From Komagataeibacter sp. FNDCF1 (GTDB taxonomy: Bacteria; Pseudomonadota; Alphaproteobacteria; Acetobacterales; Acetobacteraceae), in NCBI RefSeq assembly GCF_021295335.1, contig NZ_JAIWOT010000001.1:2141001-2205000 (forward strand): 64,000 nucleotides of DNA. The letters run 5' to 3'. How positions within the stretch are numbered: position 1 is the first letter of the stretch; every line of letters starts with the position of its first letter. Position numbers and translations under genes: made by a program. Under the pieces are notes generated by a model, which was not told where the DNA came from, did no database searches, and was given only the letters and a program-made list of their open reading frames with translations. Below, one piece after another: positions 54,671-63,161 of this stretch.

Positions 54671-54745
54671 GCTGCTGTAGCTCAGTGGTAGAGCACTCCC
54701 TTGGTAAGGGAGAGGTCGACAGTTCAATCCTGTCCAGCAGCACCA
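54671..54745 (+). tRNA. tRNA-Thr(GGT), integration target
   Basis: 75 nt with CCA. Acceptor GCTGCTG/CAGCAGC, anticodon stem CTCCC/GGGAG with loop TTGGTAA, T loop TTCAATC. Its 3' 49 nt form part of the left attachment repeat, so the gene stays whole after integration. Confidence 0.97.
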
Positions 54746-54747
54746 TT
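54697..54747 (+). repeat. attL core, 51 bp
   Basis: Identical to 63111-63161. Covers the anticodon loop to the 3' end of tRNA-Thr plus two T residues. Confidence 0.93.
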
Positions 54748-54796
54748 CCCCCTTGTTTTTCAATGACTTGTGTTTTTAGGCAAAGTCGCTGATAGC

Positions 54797-54811
54797 TAGC
54801 ATAGCCCTAGC
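54797..54811 (+). promoter_or_regulatory. Candidate left integrase arm site
   Basis: TAGCATAGCCCTAGC, 50 bp inside attL; 13 of 15 bases match the site at 63037-63051. It lies in the presumed integrase promoter. Confidence 0.45.
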
Positions 54812-54839
54812 GCAGCCGCGAAAAACCAAGGATTTTGGG

Positions 54840-56102
54840 GTGAATAAGCACAGTTCTAGCAAAGGCCGGAAACCATATAATCTGTTTCAGCCTGCCGGGT
54901 CTGCTAATTGGTCCGTTAGATTTTCGATTCGGGGACAGGGTCAAATCCGCAAAAGCCTTGGCACCCCCGATATTCACCGGGCAGAAATCAAGGCGCAGCG
55001 AATCTATTATGAAACGCTGTATAAGGCCGAAGAAGGCCTGAACGTTAAAGCCAGCACCATCAGCAAGATCATTGCCGAATTCGTGGCCGATATGGAAACC
55101 AAGGCCACGCAGGGCTTTATGCCCAAAAACGTGGCAAGCCAGAACAAAGCGATTTTGGAACGCTACGTGGATGGGTTCTTTGGTCCACATAATCCGAATT
55201 TCATCAGCACCAAAACCATCGACCAGTACCTATCATGGCGATCAGATTACTGGGTCACAGGGCCGGGTAAGGATATTGCCTACCTGACCTATGAACGGGG
55301 CGGCAAAACCATCACAGCGCCCGTCACAGCAAAGAAGCGCGTCCGTCCTTCTCCAGCTACCCTGAACAGGGAAAGGGCCGCCCTAAGCGCTTTCCTGCGC
55401 TACTGTTTTGATTCGCAATACATCAAGGCAATTCCTGAAATCCGAACGGTTAAAACTGGCTACACAGCCCGTCCCGGTTTTTCGGAAAAGGAATTTGAAG
55501 CCTTTTCCGCATATGCCCGCGCATCATCACAGGAAGCAGGGCTTCATCCAGCCGTATTTTATGATCGTTGGCTCTTTTTCCCGTATGTAAGTTTCATCGC
55601 CCTAAGCGGAATGCGCCCAACCGAAGTTAAGAATATGAAATGGGGCGATGTTATTGGTTTGGAAATCGATAAGGATGGCATTCCACGGGAAACAGATGTT
55701 CATTTGCGGGTTCATGGAAAAGGCCGATCACGCGAATTGATCCCGCGTGAAGAATTAGCCTTTGGTATCAGGATGTTATACAAATTTTATATAGATGAAG
55801 CAGGGTTCATACCTGATAAGAATGATTTCCTGTTCATGCACAAGGATAGAACGCAGTTCAAATCCTTCACCGGCCAGTTTAACAGGGCATTAGCTGCCAC
55901 CGGCCTTACAAGGGATTATCGTGGGGTAAAGCGCACGCCCTACAGCCTGCGCCACTACTATATCACTGAACAGCTAAGGCGCGGCGTGGATGCTTACATT
56001 CTGGCCCGCAATGTAGGCACCAGCGTAAAGATGCTGGAAGAACATTACGATCATAATACAAATGAGCGCTATAAAGAGATGTTGCGCCCCAGACGGAATT
56101 AG
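54840..56102 (+). CDS. int: Tyrosine site-specific integrase
   Basis: 420 residues from GTG 54840 (AAGGA 7 nt upstream). N-terminal SAM-like DNA-binding domain (about 60-180), then the catalytic domain: Arg in SGMRPTEVKNMKW (about 258), SLRHYY (about 370; the usual His two before Leu is replaced), NVGTSVKMLEEHYDH with nucleophile Tyr about 403. It would recombine the tRNA-Thr site with the element site. Lies 92 bp inside attL, reading into the element. Its stop abuts the stop of the convergent gene. Confidence 0.92.
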   Translation: MNKHSSSKGRKPYNLFQPAGSANWSVRFSIRGQGQIRKSLGTPDIHRAEIKAQRIYYETLYKAEEGLNVKASTISKIIAEFVADMETKATQGFMPKNVASQNKAILERYVDGFFGPHNPNFISTKTIDQYLSWRSDYWVTGPGKDIAYLTYERGGKTITAPVTAKKRVRPSPATLNRERAALSAFLRYCFDSQYIKAIPEIRTVKTGYTARPGFSEKEFEAFSAYARASSQEAGLHPAVFYDRWLFFPYVSFIALSGMRPTEVKNMKWGDVIGLEIDKDGIPRETDVHLRVHGKGRSRELIPREELAFGIRMLYKFYIDEAGFIPDKNDFLFMHKDRTQFKSFTGQFNRALAATGLTRDYRGVKRTPYSLRHYYITEQLRRGVDAYILARNVGTSVKMLEEHYDHNTNERYKEMLRPRRN

Positions 56103-56723
56103 CTACAAGCGGTCAAGCTCTTCTAGGTTTAGGAAGGGCTTGACCAAATTAGGAAAAATATTAACCAGAAAGTTTATTATTATGCTCCCGCATAAACTTG
56201 CCTCATTCATTAAATCATCATGTTCTATTTCGCTATCTTCATATTTTCTTCTAGAAGAAACCAACATCAATATGCTTTCCATTATAGTGTTAACTTCTAA
56301 AAAAACTTCAGCATCGTAAATAAAAATAAACTCATGGCTCATGGCAAGAAGAGAGTTGCTAACATTCTTTAAATTATCGTAAGATTCTTTAAAGATATTT
56401 GATCTAAATTCATTGATTTTGTCCTTAAAAGACTTATATAATTCATATCTCTTTTCAAAAACTTCTAGTTTGAGCTTTCCTCTGGCAATTTGTTTTTGTT
56501 CTTCTGAAAGTTTTAGCTGATTCTTCTGAAGATCATGTTGCCTTGTTGATAATTTCCATTGTTGCCATGCTACGTAAACCACAGCGAATGGCACTATTGC
56601 TCTGGCTCCTTCACAAATTGTATCCCACCATCCCTTGCCAGATGGAGGCATAGCATTGGTTACGAAAACCATCGGTGGGGTATTCAGCACATCCGGCGCA
56701 TGCGCCAATGTATTCAAATCCAA
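56103..56723 (-). CDS. Membrane-anchored coiled-coil protein, unknown function
   Basis: 206 residues, no family recognised. One hydrophobic segment (about 39-56, ARAIVPFAVVYVAW) near the N terminus is followed by a charged coiled coil (about 57-125: Q/K/E-rich, LSEEQKQIARGKLKLEVFEKRYELYKSF split here) and a helical C-terminal domain. It starts 2 bp after the serine recombinase stop, so the two are probably co-transcribed. AT-rich codon use sets it apart from the chromosome. Possible cargo or immunity-type gene by position only. Confidence 0.65.
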   Translation of the reverse strand: MDLNTLAHAPDVLNTPPMVFVTNAMPPSGKGWWDTICEGARAIVPFAVVYVAWQQWKLSTRQHDLQKNQLKLSEEQKQIARGKLKLEVFEKRYELYKSFKDKINEFRSNIFKESYDNLKNVSNSLLAMSHEFIFIYDAEVFLEVNTIMESILMLVSSRRKYEDSEIEHDDLMNEASLCGSIIINFLVNIFPNLVKPFLNLEELDRL

Positions 56724-56725
56724 GC

Positions 56726-61945: not shown

Positions 61946-62233
61946 ATTTATACAATGCCGGAATCATTATTTCAACTTTTATGTATGTATTTATATTTCT
62001 AATGAAGAAATACATATGTTGATTGCTTTCGTAAGCAAAAAACTTTTGCACTGCTTTACACAATGCGCTTCCCCCCCTTAATATAAGGAACCCCTACTAA
62101 AATAGAAGTTGGGGATTTTTCCGGGGAATTTCTATATTACTAACATATAAGTTTACGTGTGTAAATATAAAAAATAAAGTATTTTAATAAACCCCCATAA
62201 AATCCCCCATTTCTTAAAAAATTGCGGAAATCA

Positions 62234-62291
62234 GGACTTTTTTAGGGGGTAAAAGTTGGGGGTTTTCTGGGGCCGCCCCCTAAAAAAGTCC
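62234..62291. repeat. 16-bp perfect inverted repeat
   Basis: GGACTTTTTTAGGGGG (62234-62249) and CCCCCTAAAAAAGTCC (62276-62291), 26-nt G-rich loop with GGGGG and GGGG runs. Confidence 0.75.
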
Positions 62292-62339
62292 CGTCTTTCT
62301 TAGTTTATTCCAGATTTTTGTGTGCCTTGGCGAACAAAA

Positions 62340-62383
62340 CCCCCATTTCCGAGGGTTCATCCCTCAATTTTGGGGGCTTTTTT
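62340..62383 (+). terminator. Nested hairpin with T tract
   Basis: CCCCCAT outer and GAGGG/CCCTC inner stems, closed by TGGGGGCTTTTTT. On the + strand it looks like a terminator, yet no + strand gene precedes it; a small RNA is possible. Confidence 0.5.
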
Positions 62384-62572
62384 CGGGGCCTACCCCTGTG
62401 GGGTAATCCGGAAAAACCGCGTTAGCTCTAGCGCGCCAATCCCATTTTTTCTACGTATGCCAATTTTCTGAAAAGTTTTTTAGCCCCCCCCCCGGGGTAA
62501 TTCTTAAAAAGGCGGACACCGAAAACGCGAATGTCCCTTTCTGTTTTCTGAAAGTTATTTTGAAATATTTTT

Positions 62573-62764
62573 TCAGCAGTCCCTGTCATTTGGGGGGAAT
62601 GGCTTACCCGTTAACAAGGGATAATTCTTTTCTGGATCGGCTACGATCAAACGCAAAGCATTTTCGATGTAACCGCTTAACGACCAGCCTTCCTGTTTTA
62701 AGATTATTTGGGCCTGCTCCTTCATAGCCCGATCCACCCTGAAACTGATTCGCGTTTTATCCAT
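62573..62764 (-). CDS. Ribbon-helix-helix DNA-binding protein
   Basis: 63 residues: TRISFRVDRAMKEQAQIILKQEGW (split here) then SLSGYIENALRLIVAD, the RelB/DinJ/Arc-type strand-helix-helix pattern. May repress its own promoter or act as an origin or partition factor; no toxin gene is adjacent, so an antitoxin role is unlikely unless solitary. Upstream of the non-coding block and the helicase gene on the same strand. Confidence 0.75.
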   Translation of the reverse strand: MDKTRISFRVDRAMKEQAQIILKQEGWSLSGYIENALRLIVADPEKNYPLLTGKPFPPNDRDC

Positions 62765-63110
62765 TCCAGATTTTCCTTTCTATGGCCCATTCCAGCCAGC
62801 CAGTAACAAGAGCCAGATCTCGCGTCATGGTTTATCCTCAGGCAAGCGTAAGGGGAGTCATCCTTAACCATACAGTGCCGATCGGTTAACGCCTTTTTGG
62901 GCCTTCCTGATTTGATAACCCTAAATGCTCCTTCTTAGATAACCGAATCGAAAAACTAGCGCATCATCTCTCAGAATTGCGCTTGAACTTGTCTTAGCTG
63001 GTGGCTACCATATAATGAAGCGAAAGCAGTTTAACTTAGCATAGTGCTAGCATCTTCTGCTTTCATACGCTGTAAGTTATTGTTTTTCATGGGGTATATA
63101 GGCGCTTCGT
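62765..63110. other. Right-end intergenic region of the element
   Basis: 346 bp with no gene. It holds GAAAGCAG/CTGCTTTC arms (63022-63029, 63057-63064) enclosing the candidate arm site. Probably integrase/excisionase binding DNA. Confidence 0.45.
63037..63051 (+). promoter_or_regulatory. Candidate right integrase arm site
   Basis: TAGCATAGTGCTAGC, 59 bp inside attR; 13 of 15 bases match 54797-54811. Confidence 0.45.
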
Positions 63111-63161
63111 TCCCTTGGTAAGGGAGAGGTCGACAGTTCAATCCTGTCCAGCAGCACCATT
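63111..63161 (+). repeat. attR core, 51 bp
   Basis: Exact copy of 54697-54747: a 3' tRNA-Thr fragment without D arm or acceptor 5' strand. Confidence 0.93.

What the first reader, a model, noticed from the sequence alone, without database searches (positions are those of the whole stretch)
54697..63161. Small tRNA-Thr island with a phage-satellite-like replication module
Exact 51-bp repeats, integrase at the tRNA end, and a helicase plus primase-polymerase pair on the opposite strand, with no capsid or transfer genes. This layout resembles phage satellites (established for P4 and PICI types), but the gene set matches none I can name. The element is about 8.5 kb and clearly lower in GC than its flanks.
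Basis: partly seen in the sequence, partly recalled or inferred. Interest (0 to 1): 0.75.

Follow-up and report, generated by a model that had tools for sequence, protein, structure and literature searches.

The report
Small tRNA-Thr island with own replicon
This is a small mobile DNA island sitting in a tRNA gene of an acetic acid bacterium, one of a family of stripped-down elements that carry only the tools to jump in and out and copy themselves, and it probably spreads by borrowing phages, though that last step is not shown.

Summary
An exact 51-bp repeat bounds an AT-rich island at tRNA-Thr(GGT), with an integrase at the tRNA end and no capsid or transfer gene found. It also holds a coiled-coil-like gene, a serine resolvase behind a conserved multi-box res-type site, and an RHH gene.

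It belongs to a family in acetic acid bacteria. Five other small elements carry the same tRNA-Thr core (one seen at one end only), two lie elsewhere, and empty sites exist. Gluconobacter kanchanaburiensis carries an intact sister with the same int, resolvase, primpol and DUF5906 helicase. A second Gluconobacter element is about 91% identical in int and resolvase DNA but carries a different, single-gene replication module, so modules are swapped.

Full prophages use the same tRNA core with another integrase; one abuts a family member. A related primpol/helicase pair lies in a Gluconobacter prophage.

Best reading: a phage-satellite-like, self-replicating integrative element. No AlpA and no shared packaging signal were found; membership of PICI, P4 or PICMI fails and a helper is unproven.

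The parts
54671..54745 (+). tRNA-Thr(GGT), integration site
   Evidence: ARAGORN
54697..54747 (+). left att core (51 bp, 3' end of the tRNA and two bases beyond)
   Evidence: single copy in empty-site relatives
54840..56102 (+). tyrosine integrase, 420 aa (GTG start)
   Evidence: PF00589 E 1.2e-7; 71% to L032, 68% to the two Gluconobacter elements
56103..56723 (-). 206-aa coiled-coil-like protein; distant member of a gene family that sits between int and res in sister elements and has N-terminal TM stretches there
   Evidence: hydropathy scan (no N-terminal TM stretch called in this member)
56726..57286 (-). serine resolvase/invertase, 186 aa
   Evidence: PF00239 E 2.9e-41; 78-92% to the G252, Novacetimonas cocois and K. 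europaeus elements
57302..57425 (-). res-type site: TGTNACTTTAG half-sites at 57302, 57361, 57392 (a more degenerate one near 57411)
   Evidence: 0 of 1000 shuffles reach the count
57510..57761 (-). primase-polymerase gene, C-terminal piece
   Evidence: 37-40% to the C-terminal part of the intact L106 primpol
57766..58695 (+). IS5-family insertion copy 1 (transposase 57839-58675)
   Evidence: NF033580 E 2.4e-77; inverted repeat of copy 2; multicopy
58700..59237 (-). primase-polymerase gene, AEP core piece (LFGLDFD / SHKP..HKFRV motifs, recalled as AEP motifs)
   Evidence: phrog_9765 DNA primase E 3.2e-14; 43-45% to L106 primpol
59242..60171 (-). IS5-family insertion copy 2, inverted (transposase 59262-60098)
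60176..60238 (-). short N-terminal remnant of the primase-polymerase gene
   Evidence: position between the helicase stop and IS copy 2; inference from the sequence and the intact L106 gene
60239..61840 (-). DUF5906 (SF3-type) replicative helicase, 533 aa, intact
   Evidence: PF19263 E 1.8e-12; profile of three relatives matches the NrS-1 polymerase helicase region 6k9c, E 1.1e-15
61841..62572 (.). non-coding region upstream of the helicase; candidate replication origin
   Evidence: position only; the matching region of L106 has iteron-like repeats (0 of 200 shuffles) but this one does not pass (100 of 200)
62573..62764 (-). 63-aa ribbon-helix-helix (RelB/ParD-like) protein, candidate regulator
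   Evidence: phrog_2737 E 6e-6, NF050811 E 5.2e-5 below cut-off; 60-61% homologues next to int in the N. cocois and K. europaeus elements
63037..63110 (.). conserved right arm next to att
   Evidence: 80% over 127 bp, core included, to L106
63111..63161 (+). right att core (51 bp)

Best explanation
The island is one copy of a family of minimal integrative replicons of acetic acid bacteria. Shown by sequence: the integrase lies beside the 3' end of tRNA-Thr(GGT), and an identical core marks both ends. Inferred: the integrase recombines the cores, so the element can leave as a circle. The SF3-type helicase opens an origin just upstream of its gene and the primase-polymerase primes and copies the circle. 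The serine resolvase, acting at the boxed site upstream of its gene, turns multimers into monomers. The RHH protein regulates, and the gene between int and resolvase is variable cargo, perhaps defence. Horizontal spread is most likely by packaging of replicated DNA in particles of a helper phage that uses the same hosts and the same tRNA, so it works like a minimal phage satellite; this last step is not shown. The copy in the window is probably unable to replicate by itself now, because two IS copies interrupt its primase-polymerase gene.
For: Exact att repeats and empty sites. Six small elements with the same core: window, G252 5.7 kb, Novacetimonas cocois 6.8 kb, G. kanchanaburiensis 7.1 kb, G. 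sphaericus 6.3 kb (both core copies seen), and the IMG/VR record L032 (one core seen; the record ends at the integrase, so its tRNA is not seen). Two more at other sites: K. europaeus 3.2 kb at tRNA-Lys and Acetobacter conturbans 6.2 kb between 23-bp repeats. Intact sister L106 with the same int, res, primpol, helicase. Helicase profile hits the hexameric NrS-1 helicase region, E 1.1e-15 (passages of PMC7102993 read). Iteron-like repeats upstream of the L106 helicase (6 x GGAAATGAG on both strands, 0 of 200 shuffles). Conserved res-type boxes in 7 of 7 family elements with a resolvase that were tested. Phage links: same tRNA core used by a 45.5-kb prophage in G261 with TerL and portal and another integrase; tape-measure proteins between core copies in G123 and G013; a prophage with lysozyme, TerL, portal and sheath abuts the L032 element; a related primpol/helicase pair on a Gluconobacter contig with TerL and tail sheath. 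Published satellites carry DUF5906 genes in their replication zone and one tRNA-Phe group carries a resolvase (PMC10111431, passages).
Against: No helper is identified. Outside the att core the longest exact stretch shared with the sampled prophage DNA (six 20-kb stretches around three TerL hits of the own genome, plus the G261 and L032 prophages) is 15 bp, and BLAST of six family elements against prophage-bearing stretches found the core only. No AlpA in the genome at E<=1, no terminase, capsid or interference gene among the island proteins. The TerL profile used for the own genome also rings in 11 of 14 control genomes, so those three hits do not prove prophages. The resolvase is a plasmid-type trait: 63% relatives on Komagataeibacter nataicola plasmids. 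The res boxes were not seen upstream of the resolvases of four other loci of the genus or of the plasmid records, so they mark this family only. The window's own non-coding region shows no significant repeats. In a Thermus element, loss of the primpol did not affect its replication (PMC7693054, abstract).
Confidence: 0.5

Rival explanations
1. An integrative plasmid: the same excision, replication and multimer resolution, but spread is by transformation, mobilisation in trans or other means, with no phage helper.
For: Resolvase plus res-type site is a plasmid-maintenance trait and its plasmid relatives are in the same genus. No phage packaging gene or shared signal found. Cryptic integrated elements with a primase and no phage or conjugation genes are a described class (PMC5862659 section 11).
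Against: No free plasmid relative found: the helicase has 1 distant record in 72,556 plasmids at E<=1e-3, the L107-type replicase none at E<=1e-8, the L106 primase 5 partial matches of about 31%, the integrase one near-full-length match at 39% on a 629-kb replicon and one partial at 33%. No relaxase hit among island proteins. No second copy of the integrase in the 5-contig genome.
Confidence: 0.32
2. A degraded prophage that has lost its structural genes.
For: Integrase relatives at 37-38% occur in IMG/VR records, one with a distant relative of the coiled-coil gene, and a related replication pair occurs in a Gluconobacter prophage. The window copy is damaged by IS, and the N. cocois helicase is split into two reading frames.
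Against: Eight small elements of 3.2-8.4 kb in Komagataeibacter, Novacetimonas, Gluconobacter, Acetobacter and an IMG/VR record share the compact plan, several with all genes intact and exact ends; full prophages at this tRNA carry a different integrase.
Confidence: 0.06
3. The primpol/helicase pair is mainly a barrier or defence module against incoming DNA, and replication of the element is secondary.
For: Thermus ICETh2 Ppol lowers uptake of environmental DNA and is not needed for replication (PMC7693054, abstract).
Against: PADLOC gave no hit for the window helicase or the L106 helicase and primpol; the module lies beside an iteron-like region in L106 and its place is taken by a different helicase/primase protein in L107, as expected for a replicon.
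Confidence: 0.07

Closest known systems
Gram-negative PICIs (PMC6092414, PMC10111431; passages read)
   Same: Small island with integrase and a primase/helicase replication zone; DUF5906 proteins and, in one tRNA-Phe group, a resolvase have been noted in satellites.
   Different: No AlpA in the genome at E<=1, no late genes, replication genes on the strand opposite to int, resolvase with a res-type site; helper dependence untested.
PICMI (PMC10803314; abstract, sections 7 and 10 read)
   Same: Similar size (average 6.7 kb in Vibrionaceae), few genes, no capsid or packaging genes, int plus primase.
   Different: PICMI is defined by int, alpA and prim at fis in Vibrionaceae; here tRNA-Thr, no alpA, a two-gene primpol/helicase and a resolvase.
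Cryptic integrated elements with AEP primases (class iii of PMC5862659; abstract, sections 11 and 12 read)
   Same: Integrase, direct repeats at a tRNA, archaeo-eukaryotic-type primase, no conjugation or phage genes.
   Different: Whether this primpol belongs to the PrimPol-PV1 families was not tested; helicase is DUF5906/NrS-1 type and encoded ahead of the primase.
NrS-1 phage primase-polymerase (PMC7102993; passages read)
   Same: Helicase region is a detectable homologue (6k9c, E 1.1e-15); primase plus SF3-type helicase.
   Different: Fused in NrS-1, two genes here; the primpol itself had no credible match in the PDB.
Komagataeibacter nataicola plasmids pKNA06 / NZ_CP134887
   Same: 63% identical resolvase; a VapE-domain gene lies upstream of it.
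   Different: Free plasmids with ParA, no integrase in the (incomplete) gene table, no other homologue of the island proteins in the 8.5-kb stretch tested, and the res boxes are not kept.

Membership tests
Gram-negative PICI | int, alpA and pri genes | tested here: not met
   int and (broken) primpol present; Phage_AlpA PF05930 gives 0 matches in the own genome at E<=1; definition from PMC10111431 passages
Gram-negative PICI | helper-phage induction and packaging | not testable with these tools
   needs infection or induction experiments
PICMI | integration next to fis with int, alpA, prim | tested here: not met
   tRNA-Thr site, no AlpA; definition from PMC10803314 section 10
P4-like satellite | P4 hallmark genes such as sid, psu, delta (recalled) | tested here: not met
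   no such hit among island proteins in Pfam, PHROGs or NCBIfam
Phage satellite (functional sense, PMC11389934 passages) | gene or DNA signal that favours packaging in helper particles | tested here: inconclusive
   no shared stretch over 15 bp with sampled prophage DNA apart from att; no cos/pac site was identified for PICMI either, so absence is not decisive
Prophage | structural and packaging genes between the att sites | tested here: not met
   no hit among island proteins; clear of the named genes only ORFs of 49 and 53 aa remain at 40 aa or more
ICE / IME | relaxase or conjugation gene | tested here: not met
   no hit among island proteins; oriT not tested
Integrated cryptic AEP element (PMC5862659 class iii) | integrase, att repeats, AEP primase, no phage or conjugation genes | tested here: met
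   primase hit is to phage primase PHROGs, AEP family not resolved and its motifs recalled
Plasmid-type resolvase/res system | serine resolvase with clustered binding boxes upstream | tested here: met
   the three-subsite layout of Tn3/gamma-delta res is recalled, binding and function not tested

The most novel reading that the evidence does not exclude
These islands are a new family of phage satellites with no packaging genes, built around an exchangeable replicon: the integrase att site and the resolvase res site bracket the replication module (most of the element between res and the right att), so that recombination at the two sites between elements meeting in one cell swaps whole replicons. 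L106 and L107 would be such a swap (91-92% DNA identity in int, in res plus its site and in the last 151 bp; between res and that end only one 49-bp patch aligns), and the window element would be another mosaic (integrase of the Gluconobacter type, resolvase block of the Komagataeibacter/Novacetimonas type). Against: the right border of identity lies about 100 bp inside att, the TM gene outside the bracket is swapped too, and ordinary homologous recombination in the conserved blocks would give the same picture.
Probability: 0.15. Interest if true: 0.75.

Novelty: new variant of a known kind. Interest (0 to 1): 0.5.

Why it matters
If these elements are satellites they would extend minimal satellites to the acetic acid bacteria of vinegar and bacterial cellulose production, with a different control gene set (no AlpA) and a plasmid-type resolvase. 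They offer a clean natural experiment: elements with nearly identical integrase and resolvase but different replication modules at one tRNA. That makes it possible to ask what a satellite minimally needs, and how replicons are exchanged between phages, plasmids and islands.

Tried and rejected
Single-protein scans for the helicase in genome contigs and viral contigs found nothing, as did a two-row alignment in viral contigs and the single protein in 249 family genomes apart from the own one. The two-row profile in 299 genomes of the order gave 11 matches: the own one, L106's genome, two that I opened (L231, L232) and seven weaker ones (E 4.9e-14 to 1.2e-5) not examined. The integrase has no match in the phage collection at E<=1e-10. 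A search for island DNA (helicase to right end) in 397 family genomes gave, beyond the own copy, only 7 matches of 26-62 bases at E 0.001-0.009, which I do not count as relatives or spacers. The primpol had no credible PDB match. PADLOC gave only weak hits for the L106 TM gene (PycTM, PDC-S06, E 0.0012 each) and none for the window gene. I first thought that a prophage shares the att site in tandem with the L032 element; the record holds a single core and the prophage lies with its lysis end toward it, so I claim only that it abuts. Repeats in the window's own candidate origin are not above chance; eight regions were tested and the number of 200 shuffles reaching the observed top 9-mer count was: window 100, L106 0, G263 178, L107 116, G252 left 144, G252 right 8, L232 right 2, L232 left 1. 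An alignment of both primpol pieces with L135 put the C-terminal piece in the wrong place, so it was not used.

Not followed: whether the other loci with the integrase family (most of the 80 loci) are islands or prophages; only att pairs and homologues were scanned in them. L233, L234 and L241 were fetched but not annotated; the 20-kb interval of G237 is not shown to be a prophage (its one tested protein is a helicase), and that of G152 was not looked at.
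Full report
What is there. The 51-bp repeats are exact and the left copy is the end of tRNA-Thr(GGT). All 19 sampled genomes of the genus keep this tRNA locus. The genus is Komagataeibacter: one genome of it, G250, has a contig of the same length as the K. europaeus LMG 18890 contig found (inference). Of the other 18 genomes, 13 show no second near-exact core and 5 do. The right flank of the island is found within 1.5 kb behind the single core in 6 of the 13 (0.26 kb behind it in G256, 1.1-1.35 kb in the rest), behind the second core in all 5, and was not seen in that stretch in the other 7. GC is 0.455 in the island and 0.651 to the left.

Gene content. Left to right: integrase +; then on the minus strand a 206-aa coiled-coil-like gene, a serine resolvase, the primase-polymerase, the helicase and an RHH gene. 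The primase-polymerase is in pieces: two inverted copies of an IS5-family element lie in it, each flanked by TTA. The own genome holds 35 near-full-length copies of this IS: six at 100% to the first island copy (itself included), 26 at 97% (the second island copy among them) and three at 94%, so the two are probably separate insertions. Clear of the named genes only two ORFs of 49 and 53 aa without Pfam hits remain.

Replication module. The helicase matches DUF5906 (E 1.8e-12), and a profile of three relatives matches the C-terminal helicase region of NrS-1 phage polymerase (6k9c, E 1.1e-15), which forms a hexameric ring and resembles superfamily 3 helicases (PMC7102993, passages). The core piece of the primase matches phage primases (phrog_9765, E 3.2e-14) and has motifs that I recognise as those of archaeo-eukaryotic primases (recalled). 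An intact sister exists: in Gluconobacter kanchanaburiensis (L106) a 283-aa primase gene follows a 532-aa helicase gene, with 43-45% identity to the window core piece and 30-32% to the helicase. Upstream of that helicase GGAAATGAG occurs 6 times on the two strands; 0 of 200 shuffles reach this. The same test gives 100 of 200 for the window region, 178 for G263, 116 for L107, 144 and 8 for two G252 regions, and 2 and 1 for two regions of the Acetobacter conturbans element. So repeats support an origin in L106 and perhaps A. conturbans, not in the window.

The family. With both cores: window 8.4 kb, G252 5.7, Novacetimonas cocois 6.8, G. kanchanaburiensis 7.1, G. sphaericus 6.3 kb. With one core, because the record ends at the integrase: L032, about 7.2 kb. 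Elsewhere: K. europaeus at tRNA-Lys, 3.2 kb, with int, RHH and resolvase but no replication gene found, and A. conturbans, 6.2 kb, between 23-bp repeats, with int, helicase, primase and a TM gene but no resolvase found. The N. cocois helicase lies in two reading frames. Remnants at tRNA-Thr lie in G169 and G218. Of 397 family genomes 112 have the core within 2 mismatches and 14 have two copies; on one contig the copies are 2.1, 5.7, 6.8, 7.1 and 8.4 kb apart in five genomes and 20-46 kb apart in four, and on separate contigs in five.

Mosaicism. L106 and L107 are 91% alike in DNA over int, 91% over the resolvase with its upstream site and 92% over the last 151 bp; elsewhere only a 49-bp patch aligns, and nothing of the replication genes. 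L107 has instead one 821-aa protein (phrog_31024, function unknown; DEAD-type Pfam hits below cut-off). Its G252 relative, 33% identical, matches a DNA primase PHROG in its C-terminal part (E 3e-9), so it is read as helicase plus primase; whether its primase part is related to the L106 primase was not settled. The window integrase is 68-71% to the Gluconobacter and L032 enzymes but 39-42% to those of G252, N. cocois and K. europaeus; its resolvase is 63-66% to the first group and 78-91% to the second. Parts are therefore exchanged between elements.

Resolvase site. The motif TGTNACTTTAG, one mismatch allowed, occurs 3 or 4 times within 260 bp upstream of the resolvase gene in 7 of 7 family elements tested, at nearly constant distances (16-17, 75, 106 and, except in the window, 125 in the window group), and in none did any of 1000 shuffles reach the count. 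In these seven elements 24 of 31 hits lie there. Four of the seven are close in DNA, so they are not independent. The boxes were not seen upstream of the resolvases of two K. nataicola plasmids, a Roseomonas plasmid or four other loci of the genus; the plasmid resolvases are 63% identical.

Phage connection. G261 has a 45.5-kb stretch between core copies with TerL, portal and a different integrase beside the tRNA. G350 has an integrase at the tRNA that looks like that of G261 (by eye), and G123 and G013 have tail tape-measure proteins between core copies. In G237 the one large protein tested is a helicase, so its 20-kb interval is not shown to be a prophage. The L032 element is followed directly by phage genes: lysozyme, and further on sheath, portal and TerL. 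In the Gluconobacter genome G411 a primase/helicase pair related to the window's (43% over 111 aa and 26% over 455 aa) shares a contig with TerL and tail sheath, together with a distant relative of the coiled-coil gene. The own genome has three TerL matches, so helpers may be present, but the same profile rings in 11 of 14 control genomes.

Tests against a satellite. DNA shared between six family elements and the sampled prophage-bearing stretches is the att core and its edge only. In exact-word comparison of the IS-masked island with six 20-kb stretches of the own genome and the G261 and L032 prophages, the longest match is 15 bp; for the L032 element against its neighbour it is 14 bp. AlpA is absent at E<=1. 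These do not exclude a satellite: for PICMI no packaging site could be identified either (PMC10803314 section 7). But the helper step stays an inference.

Known or new. Searches of open-licence PubMed Central papers for satellites or islands in acetic acid bacteria and for related gene sets listed no description of this family that I recognised; only listings and the named passages were seen, the paper on Acetobacter prophages (PMC9379143) was seen as a listing only, and subscription journals are not held. Temperate phages of acetic acid bacteria are described, one with a tRNA-Ser site (PMC8566455, passages; the word satellite does not occur). DUF5906 and resolvase genes have been noted in satellites (PMC10111431, passages). 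I rate it a new variant of a known kind.

Noticed in passing
57766-58695 and 59242-60171: IS5-family element with 35 near-full-length copies in the genome (6 at 100%, 26 at 97%, 3 at 94% to the first island copy); a heavy IS load.
   Followed up: partly
L254-L259 (own genome around 0.69, 0.80 and 3.49 Mb): Three TerL-profile matches; two have equal scores and lie on opposite strands, which looks like a duplicated prophage.
   Followed up: no
L271, L272: K. nataicola plasmid records look like head-to-tail repeats of a unit of about 15 kb (same protein accessions twice), with a resolvase, a VapE-domain gene and DUF2213.
   Followed up: no
L107:12841-15306: 821-aa helicase/primase-like protein; in the phage collection only the two records of Agrobacterium phage Atu_ph07 match (22%), in plasmids nothing (E<=1e-8).
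   Followed up: partly
L232:13084-13106: The A. conturbans element sits at the 5' end of a gene starting MNYRHAY, recalled as rlmJ-like.
   Followed up: no
L106:11263-11958: TM gene at the variable slot between int and resolvase has a weak Pycsar TM effector match (E 0.0012); the slot may carry defence cargo.
   Followed up: partly
L106:16072-16842 and L032:6279-7046: A 255-256 aa protein, 72% alike, next to attR in two elements; no Pfam match in either, and no PHROG or PADLOC match for the L106 one.
   Followed up: no
L098:5334-7553: An integrase remnant at tRNA-Thr with transposases between two core copies 2.1 kb apart, an element nearly erased by IS.
   Followed up: no
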